In this document: positions 9,007-38,333 of the stretch, one piece after another
How the letters are laid out: the number at the start of each line of letters is the position of its first letter
How positions within the stretch are numbered: the first letter of the stretch is position 1
Assembly: GCF_003725695.1 (NCBI RefSeq)
Contig: NZ_RJSE01000003.1
Span: 692,026 to 756,025 of the forward strand
DNA: 64,000 nucleotides
From: Nocardioides marmoriginsengisoli
Lineage (GTDB): Bacteria; Actinomycetota; Actinomycetes; Propionibacteriales; Nocardioidaceae
Direction of reading: 5' to 3'
The notes under the pieces: model-generated
The model's input: the letters and a program-made list of their open reading frames with translations, nothing else
Database searches by the model: none
What the model was told of the DNA's origin: nothing
Translations under genes and position numbers: made by a program

Positions 9007-11752
9007 GCCCCGCACCCAGCCTGGTGTAGTTGACCCGGACGCCGTCGTCGAGGTCCAGGCTCAGCCGTAGGTCGGCCAACGGCTCCAGGACGTCCCGGTC
9101 GTACGCCGTCAGCTCCGGCCGCTGGGGTCGCGCGGTGAGGTGCTTGCGGACCGCGACCACCGTCTCCGGGGTGTAACTGTGCAGGTACGTCAGCGCTTGG
9201 AACGCCCCTCGCGAGCTGGTGAACATCCAGTAGACCGGGCGCTTCCGGAAGCGCAGCACGTGGTCGGCGTAGAACGACTTCGCCAGGTAGTCGCTTCCGA
9301 CGGCCTCGGCGACGAAGCGCCGGTTCTCCTCCAGGTGCTCCTCGCCGAAGGTCGCGGCCAGGAAGTCGTCGAGCAGGACGGGGAGAGCCGCTACCGGGAT
9401 CACGTTGTCGGCGACCTGCTCGACGGGGGCGGCGTACCGCCCGAAGAGGCACCCGACGGCGTACGAGATCAGGTCGCGGACGATGTCTGCTGACGTGGGC
9501 ACGGCCTGCACCGCGCGATCTGGCCCAGCGACCTCGGCACCGTCGTAGGCACGCGCCAGCAAGCCGTCCAGCTCGTCCTCGATCGCAGCGAGTCGCTGGA
9601 CCTCGGCGGTGCGCTGCTCCTGCAGCCCGCGGACGTACTCCGCCACCGTCCCGCGCTCGAACCCGGGCGGGACGAAGTCCGGCGAGGTCTCCTGCCGGTT
9701 CCACGCACTCCGCTGGAGGTCGACCGCCTCCCGGGCCAGCGCGACGATCCGGTCGCGGTCGGCGTCGGCGTACGGGTCCGGGAGCCGGCGGATCGCCCCG
9801 GAGTTGAAGTCGAGTGCGGGCGCGAGCGCCTCCAGGAACCGGCCGGCGACCTCGGAGTTCAGCAGCGCCAGGTAGAAGAGCCGATCCTCCTCGCTGTCCG
9901 CGAAGAGGCACTGGCCCTTGGTGTCGAAGATCGAGCCGGGGTCGGCGTACCGGGCGGCGAGGCGGCCGTGCCCGATGGTCGTCCAGGTCACCGACGGCTG
10001 GAAGTAGCGGTCCTGGTTCCAGCACTTGGCGTTGTTGGTGCTGATCAGCCCGGCCGCCAGGTTCGCGGCCTTGGTCGCCTTGATCTGCTCGCCGTCGTTG
10101 TGCCACTGCACCACTACCTCGTTGGTGCCGAACCAGCGGTGCGCGCGGCCGCCCTTGTTGTACGGCACCCAGGTCGCGTCCCGGCCGAGCGCCTCGGTCG
10201 ACACCTCCCACCAGTACCGCAGGAACCGCTCGTTGTCGCCGGTCGCCATCCCGGACCGGGTGTCGACGCGCTCCGCGATCGGCGGGAGGTGCGCGAACGC
10301 GTCCAGCAGCTCGGGCGTGAGCCAGTACGCGAACACGCCCCCCGGCAACTGGCTGAGCTGGTGCCCGTCCACGTCGAATCGCCGCCCGACCCCCACCCCG
10401 GACGTCGAGCCTGTCGAGACGCCCGCACCGCGATAGGCCTCCCGAGCCACCAGCTCCTTCCGGTCCCGCGGCACGTCCACCAGCCGGAAATACGCTCCCG
10501 GACCACTCGCCGGTGCGTTCCGCAGCACGAACGCGCAGGTGGTGACGACCTCGCCGCGGCCGACCTCGAAGGCTCCCGGCCCGAGGTGGCTGAGCGTCAC
10601 CACCGACCAGCGATCCCGTACCGACTCCCGGAGGGCGGTGTAGCTGGGCAGGAACATCCAGCCCTGCATCGTGATCATCCCGACGAGCCCGCCCGGCCGG
10701 GCCAGCGCCATCGCCCGGCCGATGAACGCGGCGTACAGGTCCAGCTTCCCGGCCAGCTGGTCCTGCCGGAGCCGCTCGACGAGCAGGTCGCTGAGGTTCT
10801 TGCTGCCCAGGTACGGCGGGTTGGTGACGACCACGTGGTAGTCGCCGGAGAGGTACGCGGCCTGCTCCCGCACCAGTCGCTCCCGGGGCCGGTCGCTGCG
10901 TCGCGGCAGCTCCCCGGGCCGGATCAGCGAGCCGAACGTGTCCGCGTGCTCGAACGCGTTCCAGTCCCCCGCGGGCAGCTCGGTGAGCTCGTCGGCCGTG
11001 AACGACACCGGTCGCAGCGCGCAGACCTGCGGCTCGATCGGCCCCGTCATCCCCCGCTGCCGCGCCTTCATCGTCAGCGCGAACGACGCCAGCGCCGCCA
11101 CGTCCGGGTCGATCTCCACGCCGTACAGGTTGCGGGTGAGGATCAGCTGCGGGATCTCCGCGGCGTCGTACCCGGCCTCGGTGTAGATCGCGTGCAGCAG
11201 GTCGAAGGCGTAGGTCAGCATGTGCCCGGAGCCGCAGGCCGGGTCGAGCACGGTGAGGTCTTCGGGCCCGCTGATCCGGAGGAAGTCGGTGTCCGGCTCG
11301 GCCGGGGTGACGTAGTACGGCATCTGCTCGGCCAGCCGCGATTCCGGATGATTCAGCAGCCACAGCCGTCCGAGGGTGTTCTCGACGAGGTGCCGGACGA
11401 TCCAGTGCGGGGTGAAGAGCTGGGTCGCCGCCGGGATCTCGGCCGGGCCGGCCTTCCGCCGCTGCTTGAAGCCGGCGAAGACCTGGTCCTTGCGCTCGGC
11501 GATCCAGGCCTGGTGCAGCCACCCGACCACCTCGACGTCCTGGCAGACCTCGTCGGTCAGCACCTCACGGACCCGCGCTCGGACGTCGGCCGGACTCGCG
11601 GGCGCCTCGAAACCGGCCGCTCCGACTACGGCGGCCACCCGCTCCTGCACGAGCCCCATGAAGCAGAGGTACGCCGCGCGCTCCCCCAGCTCCCGCTGCA
11701 GCTCCGCGCGCACCGAGGTCACCAACGATCGCAGCGCACTCGCCCGGGGCAC
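8981..11752 (-). CDS. PglX-like adenine-specific DNA methyltransferase, solitary
   Basis: Protein of 923 residues resembling BREX-type PglX. Features are TQLFTPHWIVRHLVENTLGRLW, the SAM motif DPACGSGHML (about residues 170-180), the catalytic NPPY (NPPYLGSKN), and MITMQGWMFLPSY. It should methylate adenine in a specific DNA site. PglX proteins are usually near 1,200 residues, so this is a short form. No pglZ, brxC, brxL, brxA or brxB gene lies in the window, so it is not part of a BREX locus here. It may be an orphan methylase or a methylase-nuclease of the Eco57I type. The 19-bp repeat (10401-10419) is translated in frame inside it as VSTGSTS. Confidence 0.85.
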   Translation of the reverse strand: MPRASALRSLVTSVRAELQRELGERAAYLCFMGLVQERVAAVVGAAGFEAPASPADVRARVREVLTDEVCQDVEVVGWLHQAWIAERKDQVFAGFKQRRKAGPAEIPAATQLFTPHWIVRHLVENTLGRLWLLNHPESRLAEQMPYYVTPAEPDTDFLRISGPEDLTVLDPACGSGHMLTYAFDLLHAIYTEAGYDAAEIPQLILTRNLYGVEIDPDVAALASFALTMKARQRGMTGPIEPQVCALRPVSFTADELTELPAGDWNAFEHADTFGSLIRPGELPRRSDRPRERLVREQAAYLSGDYHVVVTNPPYLGSKNLSDLLVERLRQDQLAGKLDLYAAFIGRAMALARPGGLVGMITMQGWMFLPSYTALRESVRDRWSVVTLSHLGPGAFEVGRGEVVTTCAFVLRNAPASGPGAYFRLVDVPRDRKELVAREAYRGAGVSTGSTSGVGVGRRFDVDGHQLSQLPGGVFAYWLTPELLDAFAHLPPIAERVDTRSGMATGDNERFLRYWWEVSTEALGRDATWVPYNKGGRAHRWFGTNEVVVQWHNDGEQIKATKAANLAAGLISTNNAKCWNQDRYFQPSVTWTTIGHGRLAARYADPGSIFDTKGQCLFADSEEDRLFYLALLNSEVAGRFLEALAPALDFNSGAIRRLPDPYADADRDRIVALAREAVDLQRSAWNRQETSPDFVPPGFERGTVAEYVRGLQEQRTAEVQRLAAIEDELDGLLARAYDGAEVAGPDRAVQAVPTSADIVRDLISYAVGCLFGRYAAPVEQVADNVIPVAALPVLLDDFLAATFGEEHLEENRRFVAEAVGSDYLAKSFYADHVLRFRKRPVYWMFTSSRGAFQALTYLHSYTPETVVAVRKHLTARPQRPELTAYDRDVLEPLADLRLSLDLDDGVRVNYTRLGAGLKKIPGLG
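10401..10419. repeat. 19-bp interspersed repeat, copy 3
   Basis: Reads CGTCGAGCCTGTCGAGACG. It sits inside the PglX-like gene without breaking the frame, encoding VSTGSTS between two conserved blocks. This suggests insertion into a tolerant loop. Confidence 0.75.
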
Positions 11753-33614: not shown

Positions 33615-33818
33615 GTAAACTTACGCCCGGGCCGTGACCTATGCAACACCGGGGGGTGAAAAGTTCTGGCGGCCTGATCGCGATGCGCAAACGTGCAGGT
33701 CAGGGCGTTGAGAGGAGTCTGATCACCGGCGTGTCGACCACTCTTCCAGCGACCACCGACACTTCGCGGGGACCCGCTCCGGCGGTGCTCCCCGGTCGGA
33801 TTGGGCCTTTCGGCCACA

Positions 33819-34139
33819 ATGTCCCGCGTGGGCAAGCACTCGGGCGATCCGGTCGAGGAGGAACAGCTGCCGCCGGACCGGCGACGGCTGCTGAAACTTG
33901 CCGCCGGGATCACCGCGACCATCGTCGCGTGGGGGTTCCTGGTCGCCGAAGCGATCGACTTCGGGTCCCAGGGACGGTCCGGTCAGGGCGAGGCGTGGGT
34001 GTTCGCGTTCTTCGCGACGCTCGGCGCGACCGCCTGCATGTTCGTGACGCTGATCCTGGTCAACAAGGTGCTCGCCACGTTGCGCGGCGAGGTACGGGTC
34101 AAGACGGTCTCCGTGCCCGGGCGGCGGGCCGCTCGCTAG
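33819..34139 (+). CDS. Small two-helix membrane protein
   Basis: Hypothetical protein of 106 residues. A charged start (HSGDPVEEEQLPPDRRRLL) precedes helix KLAAGITATIVAWGFLVAEAI and a second helix FAFFATLGATACMFVTLILV. The C-terminus is basic. The start is uncertain: ATG 33819 was chosen, but a GTG nine bases later and a TTG at 33801 are possible. The gene stands alone. Confidence 0.65.
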   Translation: MSRVGKHSGDPVEEEQLPPDRRRLLKLAAGITATIVAWGFLVAEAIDFGSQGRSGQGEAWVFAFFATLGATACMFVTLILVNKVLATLRGEVRVKTVSVPGRRAAR

Positions 34140-34150
34140 AACCCCGCGCG

Positions 34151-34801
34151 CTACTCCAGCGTGGCCCTGAGGATCTCCAACGCCGCGACCGGGCCGCCCT
34201 CGATCGGCTCGGGACGGCCGAGCGGCTCCAGTACCTGGTCGCCGAGACGGTCCCCCCAGAGGACGAAGGAGACGCCGGCGGCGGAGTCGCTGAGCACGGC
34301 CGACTCGTACGCAATGCCCGAGATCCCCGGTTCGGTGACCTGCCGGAAGTAGTTCCCCCACGCACGGGTGCTCGGACGGTCCCGGTCGACGTTGATCGTC
34401 GCGGGCGCGTTCGCTCGTGCACGGTCCGCCTCGGAGAGCAGCGAGAGCAGCGCCACCGGCTGGGTCACCCGGAACCGCTGGATCGCGCGGGTGCTGATCT
34501 CGGTACGCGCGATCACCCGGGCTCCGGACGGCGACTCCGCGGCCAGCGACCTCAGCGTGCCCACGATCGCCGCGGTGCGGTCCAGAGCGCCGTACAGGTA
34601 CGGGTAGCGGTCACCTGGTGTCGGGTCGAACCGGCCGCCGGAGGCGATCGGCGCGACGTCGTAGTTCCAGTCGAGAGGACCGCGATCGCTGCGGGACACG
34701 AACACCCGGTAGAGCGTCGCGCCCGGCTCGATGACGTGGAGGCCCGGGTCGACCAGCGGCCGCTCGTACGCCGGCGGCGGGGGCAGGCGGTCAGTCGCCA
34801 T
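34151..34801 (-). CDS. RES-domain protein (NAD+ phosphorylase toxin-like)
   Basis: Protein of 216 residues. The RES layout is visible: LYRVF with R32, GGRFDP with R57, YPYLYGALDRTAAIVGTL, and the serine block GISGIAYESAV (S167). Active RES toxins such as MbcT degrade NAD+ by phosphorolysis and are paired with an Xre/MbcA antitoxin. Here the glutamate expected in the AxxE part seems replaced (VGTL, near G81), and no Xre gene is adjacent. Its ATG lies 11 bases inside the hydrolase-macrodomain gene, so it is the second gene of a coupled pair. Confidence 0.75.
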   Translation of the reverse strand: MATDRLPPPPAYERPLVDPGLHVIEPGATLYRVFVSRSDRGPLDWNYDVAPIASGGRFDPTPGDRYPYLYGALDRTAAIVGTLRSLAAESPSGARVIARTEISTRAIQRFRVTQPVALLSLLSEADRARANAPATINVDRDRPSTRAWGNYFRQVTEPGISGIAYESAVLSDSAAGVSFVLWGDRLGDQVLEPLGRPEPIEGGPVAALEILRATLE

Positions 34802-36230
34802 GGCCGGCCAGCCCGCTCAACTGCGTGCGGAGGAAGACGGCGTCCTCGAGGCGCTTGGTGATGAAGTGGATGCTCCACGCCGGGTCCTGCGCGAGCTCGT
34901 CCTCGAGCGCCGGCCAGATCCACTTGAAGCTCTCCTGCGGCGACAGGCCCCCACGTCCCGCGCCGAGCAGCGGGAAGCAGACCGAACGAGGGAAGTGGTC
35001 CAACTCCTCGGCGTCCTGCCGTGCCTGCTTCATCGTCGCCCGTACGGCGGCGCTCACCGCGTGCGGGTTGACGGCGTAGTCGTCGGTCTCCAGCACCGGC
35101 TCGGCGATCGCCGCGTGGTAGATCCGGACGGCGGTCGCGGGCTGCAGAGATCCCGCCGACGTCGGAGCGACCGTGCCGGGCAGCACGGTGAGACCGAGCC
35201 GGTGGTGCTCGGTCACCCACGCCGTGATCTCGTCGTGGATCGTGTCGGTGACGATCTCGCCGGACGGGCTCGTCGCCGCGCCGGCCCGCCGCAGCCGTCC
35301 GGACAACGACGGCTTGAAGAACTGGGACATCGCCAGGTAGGTGTTGCTGGACAGCACGATCGCGCCGAGACCGGCGAGCCGCTCGGGCGGGCCCGAGTGC
35401 ACGTGGAAGTCGACCGTCCCGCCGCCGATCGCGATCTGCACCGGAGGATCGGTGTGCAGCCGGTCCTGGAAGTGCTGCTCGGTGGAGGTCGCGAGGTTGG
35501 TGAACCCGACGACGGGAGGCTCCGGGATCGGCGCCTTGCTCGCTTCGATCAACCGCGTCTTGAGTGCCACGAAGGAGTCGTCGCTCGCGGACGTCGGCCG
35601 GATGATCGTCTTGTGGTCACCGGGGAGCGTGGTCGTCTGGGGCCACATCCCCTTGGCCGAGACCGCTCGCACGATGTTGTCCTCCATCGCGACGTGAGCC
35701 CGTACGTCGATGGGGCAGGTCGACGGGGTCAGATCGGTCGCCATCAGCACCCCGCGCATGATCCGCGCCTGGGCGGCCGCAACCGTGTCGGTGAGCGGTC
35801 TCAGATCCCGCTCCTGCGCGTGGGCCGGGAAGAACCCGCCCTTGCGCAGGGTCAGGAACGCCTCGGACCCGTTGTTCGGCGTCGCGAACATGAGGAAGGC
35901 GCGGACGCGCGCGAGCTCCTCGGCCCGTCCTTCGTCGAGCAGCCGCGCGAGGTAGCGCTGGATGATCAGCCCACCCTGGCTGTGGCCGACCAGGATCACC
36001 CGGGTGGCATCGAGGGACAGGAGCTTGTTGTCCAACCACTCAGCCAGATCGTTGAAATCGGGGATCCGGCGCGTCGGGTTCAGGCGGAACTTCGGGGACG
36101 GGTAGTCGACCGCCAGGCAGTCGACGATGTCCGCCAGTTCGGGATCGCTCCGCACCAGGTCGATCATCGGGGCCCACGCACGCGCCGACGAGAAGATCCC
36201 GTGCACGAACACGACGGATGCTTCAGGCAT
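34791..36230 (-). CDS. Alpha/beta hydrolase fused to a macrodomain-like region
   Basis: Protein of 479 residues, start ATG with GGAGG five bases upstream. The N-terminal half (about 1-255) is an alpha/beta hydrolase: VVFVHGIFSS and nucleophile S84 in GHSQGGLII. The C-terminal half (about 285-460) resembles a macrodomain: VQIAIGGGTVDFHVH, GAIVLSSNTYLAM, RIYHAA and PLLGAGRGGLSPQES, the usual ADP-ribose-binding loops. No signal peptide, so it is cytoplasmic. It overlaps the RES gene. An ester-bond hydrolase tied to ADP-ribose binding beside an NAD+-phosphorylase-like protein suggests one NAD+/ADP-ribose pathway. Confidence 0.8.
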   Translation of the reverse strand: MPEASVVFVHGIFSSARAWAPMIDLVRSDPELADIVDCLAVDYPSPKFRLNPTRRIPDFNDLAEWLDNKLLSLDATRVILVGHSQGGLIIQRYLARLLDEGRAEELARVRAFLMFATPNNGSEAFLTLRKGGFFPAHAQERDLRPLTDTVAAAQARIMRGVLMATDLTPSTCPIDVRAHVAMEDNIVRAVSAKGMWPQTTTLPGDHKTIIRPTSASDDSFVALKTRLIEASKAPIPEPPVVGFTNLATSTEQHFQDRLHTDPPVQIAIGGGTVDFHVHSGPPERLAGLGAIVLSSNTYLAMSQFFKPSLSGRLRRAGAATSPSGEIVTDTIHDEITAWVTEHHRLGLTVLPGTVAPTSAGSLQPATAVRIYHAAIAEPVLETDDYAVNPHAVSAAVRATMKQARQDAEELDHFPRSVCFPLLGAGRGGLSPQESFKWIWPALEDELAQDPAWSIHFITKRLEDAVFLRTQLSGLAGHGD

Positions 36231-36315
36231 TCAATCCTCCACGGGTGACTCCCGGACGGATCCTAGTGGCTGGCCCGCGGCGCGGGACTAGACCTGGACA
36301 GGTCGTCGGCGCTGG

Positions 36316-36711
36316 TCAGACCCGGTCGGCCAGGCGCCGTACGAACTTGAGACCCGACCAGATCTCGTCGATCGCGCAGACCTTCACGTCCACCACTCCG
36401 GCCGCGAGGCCGAGCTCGCGGACCTGGTTCTCGTCGAGGTCAGAGGGGACGCCGAGCTTGGCCGCGGACTTCTTCGGCCAGCAGACCCAGATCATCCCGG
36501 CCTGCTCGGTGTGCTCGATCAGGGTCGGCAGCCGCTTCGCCAGGGTGCTCGGCGCGGTGTGGAAGGTCAGCGTGATCGCGGCCAGCTTCGGCAGCCGGGT
36601 CGTGGTCGGCGCGGCCAGTGCGAACCCGTCCGGCGCGCGATCGAGGTAGACCGTCTGGGCGTCCTTGACGCCGAGCTTGGTCTCCAGCGGGGTGCCTGAG
36701 TAGCCGGCCAT
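36316..36711 (-). CDS. DUF3052 family protein
   Basis: Protein of 131 residues with the DUF3052 look common in actinobacteria: GYSGTPLETKLGVKDAQTV, the hydrophobic core ITLTFHTAPSTLAKRLP, GMIWVCWPKKSAAKLGV, LDENQVRELGLAAGVVDVKVCAIDEIWSGLKFV. Function is unknown. The ATG at 36711 agrees with family starts. It is divergent from the YhhN gene. Confidence 0.85.
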   Translation of the reverse strand: MAGYSGTPLETKLGVKDAQTVYLDRAPDGFALAAPTTTRLPKLAAITLTFHTAPSTLAKRLPTLIEHTEQAGMIWVCWPKKSAAKLGVPSDLDENQVRELGLAAGVVDVKVCAIDEIWSGLKFVRRLADRV

Positions 36712-36734
36712 GAACCGGACGCTACCGAAGGGAC

Positions 36735-36747
36735 TAGATTTCGGCTC
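36735..36747 (+). promoter_or_regulatory. -10 element for a leaderless yhhN-like transcript
   Basis: TAGATT at 36735-36740 is followed by seven bases and the GTG at 36748, without a nearby Shine-Dalgarno sequence. Confidence 0.4.
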
Positions 36748-37440
36748 GTGCCCTCACTCTCCACCTCCCTGAAGCTCAAGCTCGCGTACGTCGGGATCGC
36801 CGCCGTCGACACCTGGCTGTCGGGCTCCGCGAACCCGCGGGCCCACCAGGCCCGGGTCCTGACCAAGCCGCTGCTGATGCCCACCCTCGCCGCTTCCCTG
36901 ATCACCAGCCCGCGGGCCGCGAACTCGCCGCTGCGCACGTCCACCCTGGTCGCGCAGACGGGAGGCTGGGGCGGCGACCTCGCACTGATGGGCGACGGGC
37001 CGTCGAGCTTCCTCGCCGGGAGCGGGTCGTTCGCCGTCGGCCACGCCGCCTACATCAGCGGGTTCCTGGCCAACCGCAGCAAGGAGCGCCGACCGGGCCC
37101 GAAGGCGATCGCCGCGCTCTGGGCCGCCACCTCCCCCGGGATGGCGTTCCAGGCGTCCCGGCTCGACCGGCGCCTCGGCCCCGCGATCGCCGGCTACTCG
37201 GCGACGCTCGCGTCGACCGTCGCCGCGGCCACCCAGCTCGACCCCGCCCTCCCCCGCTCCGCGCGACGTCTGACCCTGGCGGGAGCGGGACTGTTCATGC
37301 TCTCGGACTCGATCCTGGGCACCCGGAAGTTCCTGCTGAAGAACCCGCCGCCGCGGATGGAGTCCGCGGTGATGGCGACGTACACGGCCGCGCAGTTCCT
37401 GCTGAGCGAGGGCGCGGCGCGAGCCGGGAGCCCGGCCTAG
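36748..37440 (+). CDS. YhhN-family membrane protein (lysoplasmalogenase-like)
   Basis: Protein of 230 residues with about seven hydrophobic helices. Family features include RVLTKPLLMPTLAASL, GDLALMG and FAVGHAAYISGFL, with the H and D residues proposed as catalytic in TMEM86/YhhN enzymes, and a late DSILGTRKFLL. Some members hydrolyse the vinyl ether bond of lysoplasmalogen. Activity in bacteria is rarely tested. Its end overlaps the next convergent gene by four bases. Confidence 0.85.
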   Translation: MPSLSTSLKLKLAYVGIAAVDTWLSGSANPRAHQARVLTKPLLMPTLAASLITSPRAANSPLRTSTLVAQTGGWGGDLALMGDGPSSFLAGSGSFAVGHAAYISGFLANRSKERRPGPKAIAALWAATSPGMAFQASRLDRRLGPAIAGYSATLASTVAAATQLDPALPRSARRLTLAGAGLFMLSDSILGTRKFLLKNPPPRMESAVMATYTAAQFLLSEGAARAGSPA

Positions 37441-38333
37441 AGGATCCCGAACGCGTCCCGGAACTGGTCCCGCGTCACGGTGCTGAGCTGCTCGGCCGGC
37501 AACACCAGGGTCCTCAGGTTGGGCAGGAACTCGGCAGCGAGCTCGACAGCGAGCTCCTGAGCCTGAGCCGGCTGCTCCGGTTCTGACATGCCGTAGGCGA
37601 TCACCAGGCACGGTACGGCGTTCGGCCCGAGCCTCTTGACCACTGCGGCCTGGTGGAGGACGGCCCGGCGGATCGTCGTCCGGTAGGACTTCAGGTGCCG
37701 GAGGTACTTCACGTCGATGACGTACTGGAAGCCAGAGCCTTCGGGCCGAGCCAGGACGTCGACGATGTAGTTCTTCTCGAGCCCCTGCACCTCGACGCCG
37801 AGCTCGACGCGGTGGGAGTCCCCCAGCGCATCCCGCGCCAACCCCAGCACGTCGAGCTCCGCCTGCAAGGCCCGAGAAGCCGGCTCCGCCCCCGAGGCAC
37901 CACCGACGGACTCCGGGGAGGCGTCGTCCTGAGCCTGGGCAAGCGCCTCCGCCTCGGCAGCGATCCGGCGCTCCGGCTCGGTGAGCTTGCGGAGCTCCAC
38001 CTCCTGCAGCTCGGCCGCCACCTTGTCGGCCTTGTCCTCGCTCTCCTGCCGCGGGATCCATCCCCGCAACCCGAGGTAGGCCACGATCAGTCCCACCGCA
38101 ATGCCGACGACCAGGAACCACGGCAGCGCGTTGGTCGCGAACTCGAGGAAGCCCTGCTTGTCGCGGATCGTCCGCTGGGCCGACGGCGTCAACCCGGCCA
38201 GCTCCTTGCGGGAGACCATCAAGCCGTCCTGCAACCGCAGGAAGAGACCACCGGCGGACAGAGTCGCCGCAACGATCCCCACACCGAGGGTGGTGAGGTA
38301 CTTGCTCAGGTGGCTCGCATCAGGTGACAACAT
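37437..38333 (-). CDS. Two-helix membrane protein with PD-(D/E)XK-like C-terminal domain
   Basis: Protein of 298 residues. Helices near 14-35 and 68-90 (LPWFLVVGIAVGLIVAYLGL) are followed by a charged coiled-coil-like stretch (about 95-140). The C-terminal domain has YIVDVLARPEGSGFQYVIDVKYL, a D-(x)n-DVK arrangement as in restriction-type nuclease folds, and then an alpha helix with QAAVVKRLG. Membrane-anchored nuclease-like proteins occur in phage defence, but this is unrecognised and the nuclease call is by motif only. It is a single gene. Confidence 0.55.
   Translation of the reverse strand: MLSPDASHLSKYLTTLGVGIVAATLSAGGLFLRLQDGLMVSRKELAGLTPSAQRTIRDKQGFLEFATNALPWFLVVGIAVGLIVAYLGLRGWIPRQESEDKADKVAAELQEVELRKLTEPERRIAAEAEALAQAQDDASPESVGGASGAEPASRALQAELDVLGLARDALGDSHRVELGVEVQGLEKNYIVDVLARPEGSGFQYVIDVKYLRHLKSYRTTIRRAVLHQAAVVKRLGPNAVPCLVIAYGMSEPEQPAQAQELAVELAAEFLPNLRTLVLPAEQLSTVTRDQFRDAFGIL

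What the first reader, a model, noticed from the sequence alone, without database searches (positions are those of the whole stretch)
34151..36230. Alpha/beta hydrolase-macrodomain fusion coupled to a RES-domain protein
RES enzymes turn NAD+ into ADP-ribose-1''-phosphate; macrodomains bind ADP-ribose. The two genes overlap by 11 bases. The RES protein seems to lack its usual glutamate and no Xre antitoxin is next to it, so this is not a standard RES-Xre pair. It may be a new NAD+/ADP-ribose defence or stress system in which the hydrolase part is the effector.
Basis: inference. Interest (0 to 1): 0.7.

Follow-up and report, generated by a model that had tools for sequence, protein, structure and literature searches.

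The report
RES enzyme paired with macrodomain receptor
Two overlapping bacterial genes encode a lipase-like enzyme fused to an ADP-ribose-binding module and a partner related to NAD-destroying toxins; such modules and partners recur side by side in many actinobacteria, which suggests a NAD-derived signalling or stress system, although the partner in this genome has lost a key residue.

Summary

The link is real. In 246 Streptomyces genomes, 40 of 40 strong hits to this macro family have a RES gene within 8.5 kb; 0 of 7 weak hits do. Two architectures recur. Hydrolase-macro genes have RES directly downstream in 6 of 7 loci, window included, without Xre. Macro proteins with another N-terminal domain have RES plus an Xre-like gene in 44 of 46 loci, mostly with CHAT. 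The same hydrolase without macro has no RES (0 of 56 loci), but is often fused to NB-ARC, TPR or EAD2, as immune effectors are.

Best reading: a RES/macro module in which a NAD-derived RES product is read, or removed, by the macrodomain, with the hydrolase as effector; Thoeris-like logic with RES for TIR. The window copy is a variant whose RES is probably inactive or altered. Defence is untested.

The parts
34791..36230 (-). Alpha/beta hydrolase-macrodomain fusion, 479 aa
35526..36230 (-). Alpha/beta hydrolase domain, residues 1-235 about; presumed triad Ser84 (35979-35981), Asp184 (35679-35681), His206 (35613-35615)
   Evidence: Abhydrolase_6 5.5e-15; S84 in 13 of 13, D184 and H206 in 14 of 14 hydrolase-macro sequences (one fragment lacks the S84 region). 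Triad role inferred from the fold family
34797..35435 (-). Macrodomain, residues 266-478
   Evidence: Macro 21.9 bits vs cut-off 22; fold match to macrodomains; local profile coordinates (the window helped build that profile)
34151..34801 (-). RES-fold protein, 216 aa, divergent, without the R-E-S glutamate
34559..34561 (-). Gly81 codon at the position of the conserved RES glutamate
   Evidence: alignments
34791..34801 (-). 11-base overlap of the two genes
   Evidence: sequence
33819..34139 (+). Left edge of the variable site: small protein, convergent, recognised in 13 of 17 fetched regions of the genus
36316..36711 (-). Right edge of the variable site: 131-aa DUF3052-like protein, recognised in 9 of 17 fetched regions of the genus
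   Evidence: (PF11253, below cut-off)

Best explanation
The two genes are a divergent member of an actinobacterial RES/macro module. General scheme: a RES-fold enzyme, held in check until a trigger, converts NAD+ into an ADP-ribose derivative (ADP-ribose-1''-phosphate in the characterised NatT). A dedicated macrodomain protein encoded beside it binds that product. In the hydrolase-macro version, binding switches on the fused alpha/beta hydrolase, which then attacks a cell component such as membrane lipid, so that the cell stops or dies. Shown here: both folds (predicted), the fusion, the conserved hydrolase triad, the conserved RES/macro gene linkage, the reuse of this hydrolase on NLR-like proteins, and the loss of the RES glutamate. 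Inferred: product binding, activation, target and purpose. In the window the RES keeps Arg32, Arg57, Tyr70 and Ser167 but not the glutamate, and has neither an Xre neighbour nor the N-terminal extension of its counterparts, so it is probably a weak or dead enzyme kept as a ligand-binding regulatory partner; the signal would then have to come from elsewhere.
For: RES within 8.5 kb of 40 of 40 strong macro-family hits in 246 Streptomyces genomes (26 within 1.1 kb, 4 at 4.1-4.2 kb, 10 at 7.0-8.4 kb), 0 of 7 weak hits; all 35 genomes with a strong macro hit have a strong RES against 3 of the other 211 (Fisher p 2e-39). Further class-wide strong loci: 5 of 7 near. Hydrolase-macro loci: RES directly downstream in 6 of 7 with the window, in two very different RES groups. 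Control: 0 of 56 loci with the same hydrolase but no macro. The hydrolase is fused to NB-ARC (14 of 43 C-termini), TPR_12 (16), EAD2 (6). NatT makes ADPR-1P (PMC11535050, passages). Thoeris precedent: His-ADPR activates ThsA by binding its macro domain (PMC11204291, passage).
Against: No biochemistry. The window's RES lacks a residue whose alanine substitution phenocopies deletion in GndR (PMC12457610, passages). The GDI motif of classical macrodomains (recalled) is not recognisable by eye, so the ligand cannot be read off. Hydrolase-macro occurs without RES at least once (L027, whose genome has no PF08808 hit), and two of seven class-wide macro loci lack a near RES. The macrodomain may remove rather than sense the product. 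Nothing ties the pair to phage: PADLOC gives only a chance-level LmuA hit (E 0.079) and no IMG/VR relative was confirmed.
Confidence: 0.5

Rival explanations
1. Eraser model: RES is the toxin and the macrodomain protein is an antidote or recycler that degrades ADP-ribose-1''-phosphate or removes ADP-ribose from targets; the hydrolase or N-terminal domain assists. The pair is then a toxin-antitoxin-like module.
For: Macrodomains are described as processors of ADP-ribose derivatives (PMC9503650, passages). None of the 6 RES genes beside hydrolase-macro has an Xre-like neighbour, so the macro protein could be the neutraliser there. The fused gene lies upstream of RES and overlaps it, an order common for antitoxins (recalled).
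Against: In the other architecture the macro protein coexists with an Xre-like gene in 44 of 46 loci, so it is not the only control. A fused hydrolase that elsewhere sits on NB-ARC and EAD2 proteins is odd for a mere eraser.
Confidence: 0.27
2. Decaying remnant: in the window lineage the RES gene is a dying passenger of a once active pair and the hydrolase-macro acts alone or is also unused.
For: Glutamate lost; RES is far diverged, with two relatives found in searches of 5.8 billion proteins that scored 2003 and 7998 candidates; the pair is in 1 of 24 genomes of the genus at a variable site.
Against: The reading frame is intact, codon-position GC is normal, the other pocket residues are kept, and P0002 at 41-42% identity also lacks the glutamate while keeping the rest, so the altered form has persisted.
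Confidence: 0.15
3. Separate functions: the two proteins are neighbours for another reason, such as shared expression at a variable site.
For: The site holds unrelated cargo in sister genomes (by eye).
Against: Linkage recurs in Streptomyces with different order, strand and distance, in two other families (G767, G1014), and is absent in controls.
Confidence: 0.05

Closest known systems
RES-Xre toxin-antitoxin modules (MbcTA, ParST, NatRT, P. putida RES-Xre)
   Same: The window's second protein has the RES fold; RES genes of the other macro architecture keep the glutamate (all 44) and have an Xre-like neighbour.
   Different: Window copy: no glutamate, no Xre found, no PF08808 hit; a macrodomain protein is the partner.
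Macro-domain Thoeris (ThsA with macro domain, activated by His-ADPR made by a TIR protein)
   Same: A NAD-consuming enzyme family beside a macrodomain-bearing putative effector.
   Different: RES instead of TIR, alpha/beta hydrolase instead of the ThsA effector region; signalling not shown here. Compared through passages of PMC11204291 only.
Actinobacterial conflict systems with effector-associated domains (Kaur, Burroughs, Aravind)
   Same: Alpha/beta hydrolase, Macro and caspase domains appear there as effector components (PMC7159879 and PMC8195603, passages); the same hydrolase is fused to EAD2 and NB-ARC.
   Different: The word RES occurs 0 times in the main text held of either paper; the RES/macro linkage was not seen in the passages.
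DarTG (toxin ADP-ribosyltransferase with macrodomain antitoxin)
   Same: ART-fold enzyme next to a macrodomain protein.
   Different: Different ART family; RES has an Xre-like neighbour in 44 of 46 loci of the other architecture. DarTG known from listings and recall only.

Membership tests
RES domain family (PF08808) | RES/ART fold | tested here: met
RES domain family (PF08808) | R-E-S residues | tested here: not met
   Arg57 and Ser167 kept, Glu replaced by Gly81
RES domain family (PF08808) | score above the curated cut-off | tested here: not met
   no hit at E<=1; relative P0123 has 79 bits
RES-Xre toxin-antitoxin system | adjacent Xre/MbcA/ParS-type antitoxin | tested here: not met
   no hit in the window with a local two-sequence profile; four neighbouring proteins have no such Pfam match
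RES-Xre toxin-antitoxin system | toxicity by NAD+ consumption | not testable with these tools
   needs an assay
Macrodomain (PF01661) | macro fold | tested here: met
   target TM 0.70-0.80 to macroH2A, TTHA0132 and O. iheyensis macrodomains
Macrodomain (PF01661) | score above the curated cut-off | tested here: inconclusive
   21.9 vs 22 bits; eight relatives 14-29 bits
Alpha/beta hydrolase (PF12697) | family score and Ser-Asp-His triad | tested here: met
   57.1 bits vs 26.3; triad residues conserved
Macro-domain Thoeris | TIR-domain ThsB gene next to it | tested here: not met
   no TIR among the six proteins scanned, the pair and four neighbours in 33801-38333
Macro-domain Thoeris | NAD-derived ligand activates the macro protein | not testable with these tools
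   needs binding and activity assays
NLR-like/EAD effector hydrolases | hydrolase domain shared with STAND or EAD proteins | tested here: met
   28-50% identity to the hydrolase of loci L029-L084, some of them with NB-ARC, EAD2 or TPR

The most novel reading that the evidence does not exclude
RES enzymes are messenger synthases: ADP-ribose-1''-phosphate (or a close relative) is an immune or stress second messenger in actinobacteria and this macro family is its receptor, driving a hydrolase directly, or a protease-linked response in the CHAT/caspase loci. The window's variant would be a further step in which the RES partner became a regulatory pseudo-enzyme.
Probability: 0.33. Interest if true: 0.88.

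Novelty: new variant of a known kind. Interest (0 to 1): 0.68.

Why it matters
The NatT authors ask whether ADPR-1P has signalling properties like the TIR products or whether RES enzymes simply drain NAD+, and state that no RES toxin-antitoxin system had been implicated in immunity (PMC11535050, passages). A macrodomain protein encoded near RES in each of 40 strong Streptomyces hits makes that question testable: it names the candidate receptor or eraser, a candidate effector and a set of natural pairs. If true, RES joins TIR as a maker of NAD-derived signals.

Tried and rejected
First linkage test misled me: tblastn with the window's divergent RES found no RES beside the other hydrolase-macro genes; reading the neighbours and PF08808 showed them. 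The RES protein alone finds one relative, so linkage had to be tested through the macro family. Viral contigs: 64 and 14 stretches matched a pattern, none confirmed as a relative. NCBIfam gave only hydrolase models far below cut-off and one chance-level other hit, PADLOC one chance-level hit. No promoter- or terminator-like site in 33700-36800. A defence-island reading of the site was not supported: other cargo there looks, by eye, like regulators, VOC-like and secreted proteins. The RES tree places the window copy only with P0002 and warns of long branches, so I draw no firm descent for it. I considered the genome's other RES (L001) as source of a product; it keeps the glutamate but has Pro at the serine column, so this stays speculation. 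Literature: nine answered paper searches listed no paper that I could recognise as describing a RES/macro/hydrolase system; the library lacks most subscription papers.

Limits and rows dropped: of 80 GTDB loci (the best 80 of 96; L085-L102) with short partial matches were left out of the controls. Of 56 control loci, 46 had a C-terminus of 60 aa or more and 43 of these were scanned. One 77-bit fragment of the G631 macro gene was not counted separately. The genome tool scored at most 12 or 7 candidates a genome, so matches may be missed. Local profiles were built in part from the window, L023-L028, L103 and L104, whose own hits are by construction. Two faulty steps were replaced: (wrong column in the filter), and alignment A5 with an out-of-frame slice by A6. 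Two notebook figures, '28 within 1.1 kb' and '43 of 45', were miscounts; searches give 26 of 40 and 44 of 46.

Full report
What is there. On the minus strand, 36230-34791 encodes a 479-residue protein and 34801-34151 a 216-residue protein, overlapping by 11 bases. Both have normal codon-position GC. The first is an alpha/beta hydrolase (Abhydrolase_6, 57.1 bits) followed by a macrodomain that sits at the Pfam threshold (21.9 against 22 bits). A structure model (mean pLDDT 71) matches solved macrodomains of macroH2A, TTHA0132 and O. iheyensis with target TM-scores of 0.70-0.80 (query TM about 0.3, as one of two domains aligns) and, lower in the list, alpha/beta hydrolases such as RedJ and BioH (several rows titled as SPX-domain structures also appear, target TM 0.41-0.45). 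The presumed triad Ser84, Asp184, His206 is kept in the hydrolase-macro relatives that cover it: 13 of 13, 14 of 14 and 14 of 14.

The missing glutamate. RES is named for conserved Arg, Glu and Ser; in SlvT the putative site is R35, Y45, E56, S133 (PMC7301842, passages). By spacing these correspond to the window's R57, Y70, G81 and S167. In an alignment of 56 rows, two of which are the window's own copy, the 53 rows other than the window's and P0002 all have Glu here; Arg32 and Tyr70 are in 56 of 56, Arg57 and Ser167 in 55 of 56 (P0002 has Ala there, Gly in the alignment). In GndR, alanine at each R-E-S residue phenocopied deletion (PMC12457610, passages). The NatT paper names R23, R82, Y93, S184 and N193 as active-site residues, without the glutamate, in the passage I saw (PMC11535050). 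The window's RES is therefore probably inactive or altered; it is not a proven dead enzyme.

Is the pairing real? Of six other hydrolase-macro genes found in GTDB (L023-L028), five have a RES gene directly downstream (L023, L024, L025, L026, L028); the sixth (L027) lies in a genome without any PF08808 hit. My first test with the window's RES as probe had missed all five. Those five RES proteins keep the glutamate. Three of them (L023, L025, L026) carry about 190-240 residues before the RES domain; 2 of 4 scanned (L023, L025) match HEPN_RES_NTD1 weakly, below its cut-off (L028 was not scanned). The window's RES has no such extension (RES match from residue 5).

Survey. A profile of the macrodomain alone (alignment A3) was run on 246 genomes of the genus of G391. 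I take this genus as Streptomyces, because genome G585 in it has the same three RES places as the S. hainanensis genome of L024. It gave 40 strong hits (over 150 bits) in 35 genomes and 7 weak ones (68-82 bits). PF08808, an independent model, was run on the same genomes. All 40 strong hits have RES within 8.5 kb on the same contig: 26 within 1.1 kb, 4 at 4.1-4.2 kb, 10 at 7.0-8.4 kb; none of the 7 weak hits has one within 15 kb. All 35 macro-bearing genomes carry a strong RES (the 46 best rows, E below 1e-14), against 3 of the other 211; Fisher p 2e-39. These loci are related by descent, so the p-value overstates independence; but order, strand and spacing differ among them, and the linkage persists. 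In a class-wide draw of 394 genomes, seven further strong loci appeared and five have RES near; the exceptions are G739 (its RES lies about 0.7 Mb away) and G936 (a 3.75-kb contig; no RES in the genome). The five weak hits there have no RES on their contig.

Two architectures. Using local profiles on fetched regions, 46 loci (39 of the genus survey, 7 class-wide) carry the macro family without hydrolase; in 45 of them a different N-terminal domain of about 140 residues is recognised, which has no Pfam name in the members I scanned. In 44 of 46 a RES gene is near, and in all 44 an Xre-like gene lies within 300 bases of the RES. The C-terminal part of that Xre-like family matches the neighbours of six other RES genes (hhalign probability 97%), one of which is weakly Xre_MbcA_ParS_C in Pfam (E 0.0057); three of the Xre-like proteins themselves have no Pfam match. 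CHAT is present in 41 of 46 regions and a caspase-like gene in 19 of 46 (local profiles from two and one sequences). Pfam confirms CHAT and Peptidase_C14 in L170 and CHAT in L171; PADLOC's caspase model matches the L170 gene, and NCBIfam relates it to the EACC1-associated type, below its cut-off. The second architecture is hydrolase-macro: 7 loci with the window, RES directly downstream in 6, an Xre-like gene beside none of these 6, CHAT in 0 of 7. The macrodomains of the second architecture form one clade (99/98, 13 rows). Their RES partners do not look alike: the five Streptomycetaceae ones form a tight group far from the window's, which joins only P0002 (with a long-branch warning).

The hydrolase as effector. 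The same hydrolase without macro was found in 56 other GTDB loci (L029-L084, 28-50% identity); none has a RES or macro gene in the locus by the local profiles. Of 43 C-terminal parts scanned, 14 match NB-ARC, 16 AAA_16, 16 TPR_12, 6 EAD2 and 3 NACHT. This is the effector position of NLR-like proteins, and alpha/beta-hydrolases fused to such bacterial domains have been read as membrane-lipid hydrolases (PMC8195603, passage). The window's fusion puts the macrodomain where those proteins have a STAND or EAD part.

Where it sits. The pair was found in 1 of 24 genomes of the genus (own genome counted). I fetched 17 of the 20 other nrdR regions. In 9 of 17 the nrdR gene, the small gene and the DUF3052-like gene are all recognised, mostly followed by YhhN, LysM and lexA; between the two flanking genes there are about 121 bp in G016 (L239) and about 15 bp in G012 (L243), and other genes in others; 8 of 17 lack a recognisable DUF3052-like gene. 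The pair looks like an accessory insertion. The organism is an actinobacterium of the class of Streptomyces; its name is not given.

How it most likely works. Characterised RES enzymes consume NAD+; NatT makes ADP-ribose-1''-phosphate and nicotinamide, while others are reported or predicted as ADP-ribosyltransferases or a glycohydrolase. Macrodomains bind or process ADP-ribose derivatives (PMC9503650, passages). The simplest account of a fixed RES/macro pair is that the macro protein reads or removes the RES product. Because the macrodomain coexists with an Xre-like gene in one architecture and is fused to an effector-type hydrolase in the other, I favour reading (0.5) over removing (0.27). 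The nearest precedent is the macro-domain Thoeris system, where His-ADPR activates ThsA by binding its macro domain (PMC11204291, passage). In the window, loss of the glutamate goes with the lack of an Xre neighbour and of an N-terminal extension, which fits an inactive partner that needs no restraint; this is one case only. The same genome has another RES with its glutamate, though with Pro at the serine column, and an Xre-type neighbour (L001); that it supplies a product is speculation.

Novelty. Nine answered paper searches listed nothing that I recognised as this system; I saw listings, starts of abstracts and the passages cited, and read no paper in full. I rate it a new variant of a known kind: NAD-derived signalling or toxin-antitoxin logic with a new pairing of parts.

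Noticed in passing
G000:C2:205528-206004 (L001): The same genome holds another RES gene with its glutamate (Pro at the serine column) and a weakly Xre/MbcA/ParS-like neighbour.
   Followed up: partly
L170-L189, L211-L236: A recurrent cluster, mostly in Streptomyces: unnamed 140-aa domain fused to macro, Xre-like gene, RES, large CHAT protein, sometimes a caspase-like gene. The N-terminal domain has no Pfam match in the members scanned.
   Followed up: partly
L004 142-2346(-) (G002:C18): A genome of the same genus has this hydrolase fused to about 460 residues of unknown kind.
   Followed up: no
L070 7977-12797: 1606-aa open frame with the hydrolase, an nSTAND1/AAA region and a C-terminal stretch matching FHIPEP (65.9 bits); odd combination, perhaps a chance or composite match.
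   Followed up: no
L030 7983-11411: Open frame of 1142 aa in Nocardia albiluteola with hydrolase, AAA/NB-ARC-like, TPR and HAD phosphatase matches.
   Followed up: no
window 33819-36711 and L239-L255: Variable site between a small gene and a DUF3052-like gene, near nrdR and lexA, with different cargo in sister genomes.
   Followed up: partly
L027 (Actinomycetospora lemnae): Hydrolase-macro gene with no RES in the genome by PF08808; the next gene (9697-10614) has no Pfam match and looks membrane-like by eye.
   Followed up: no
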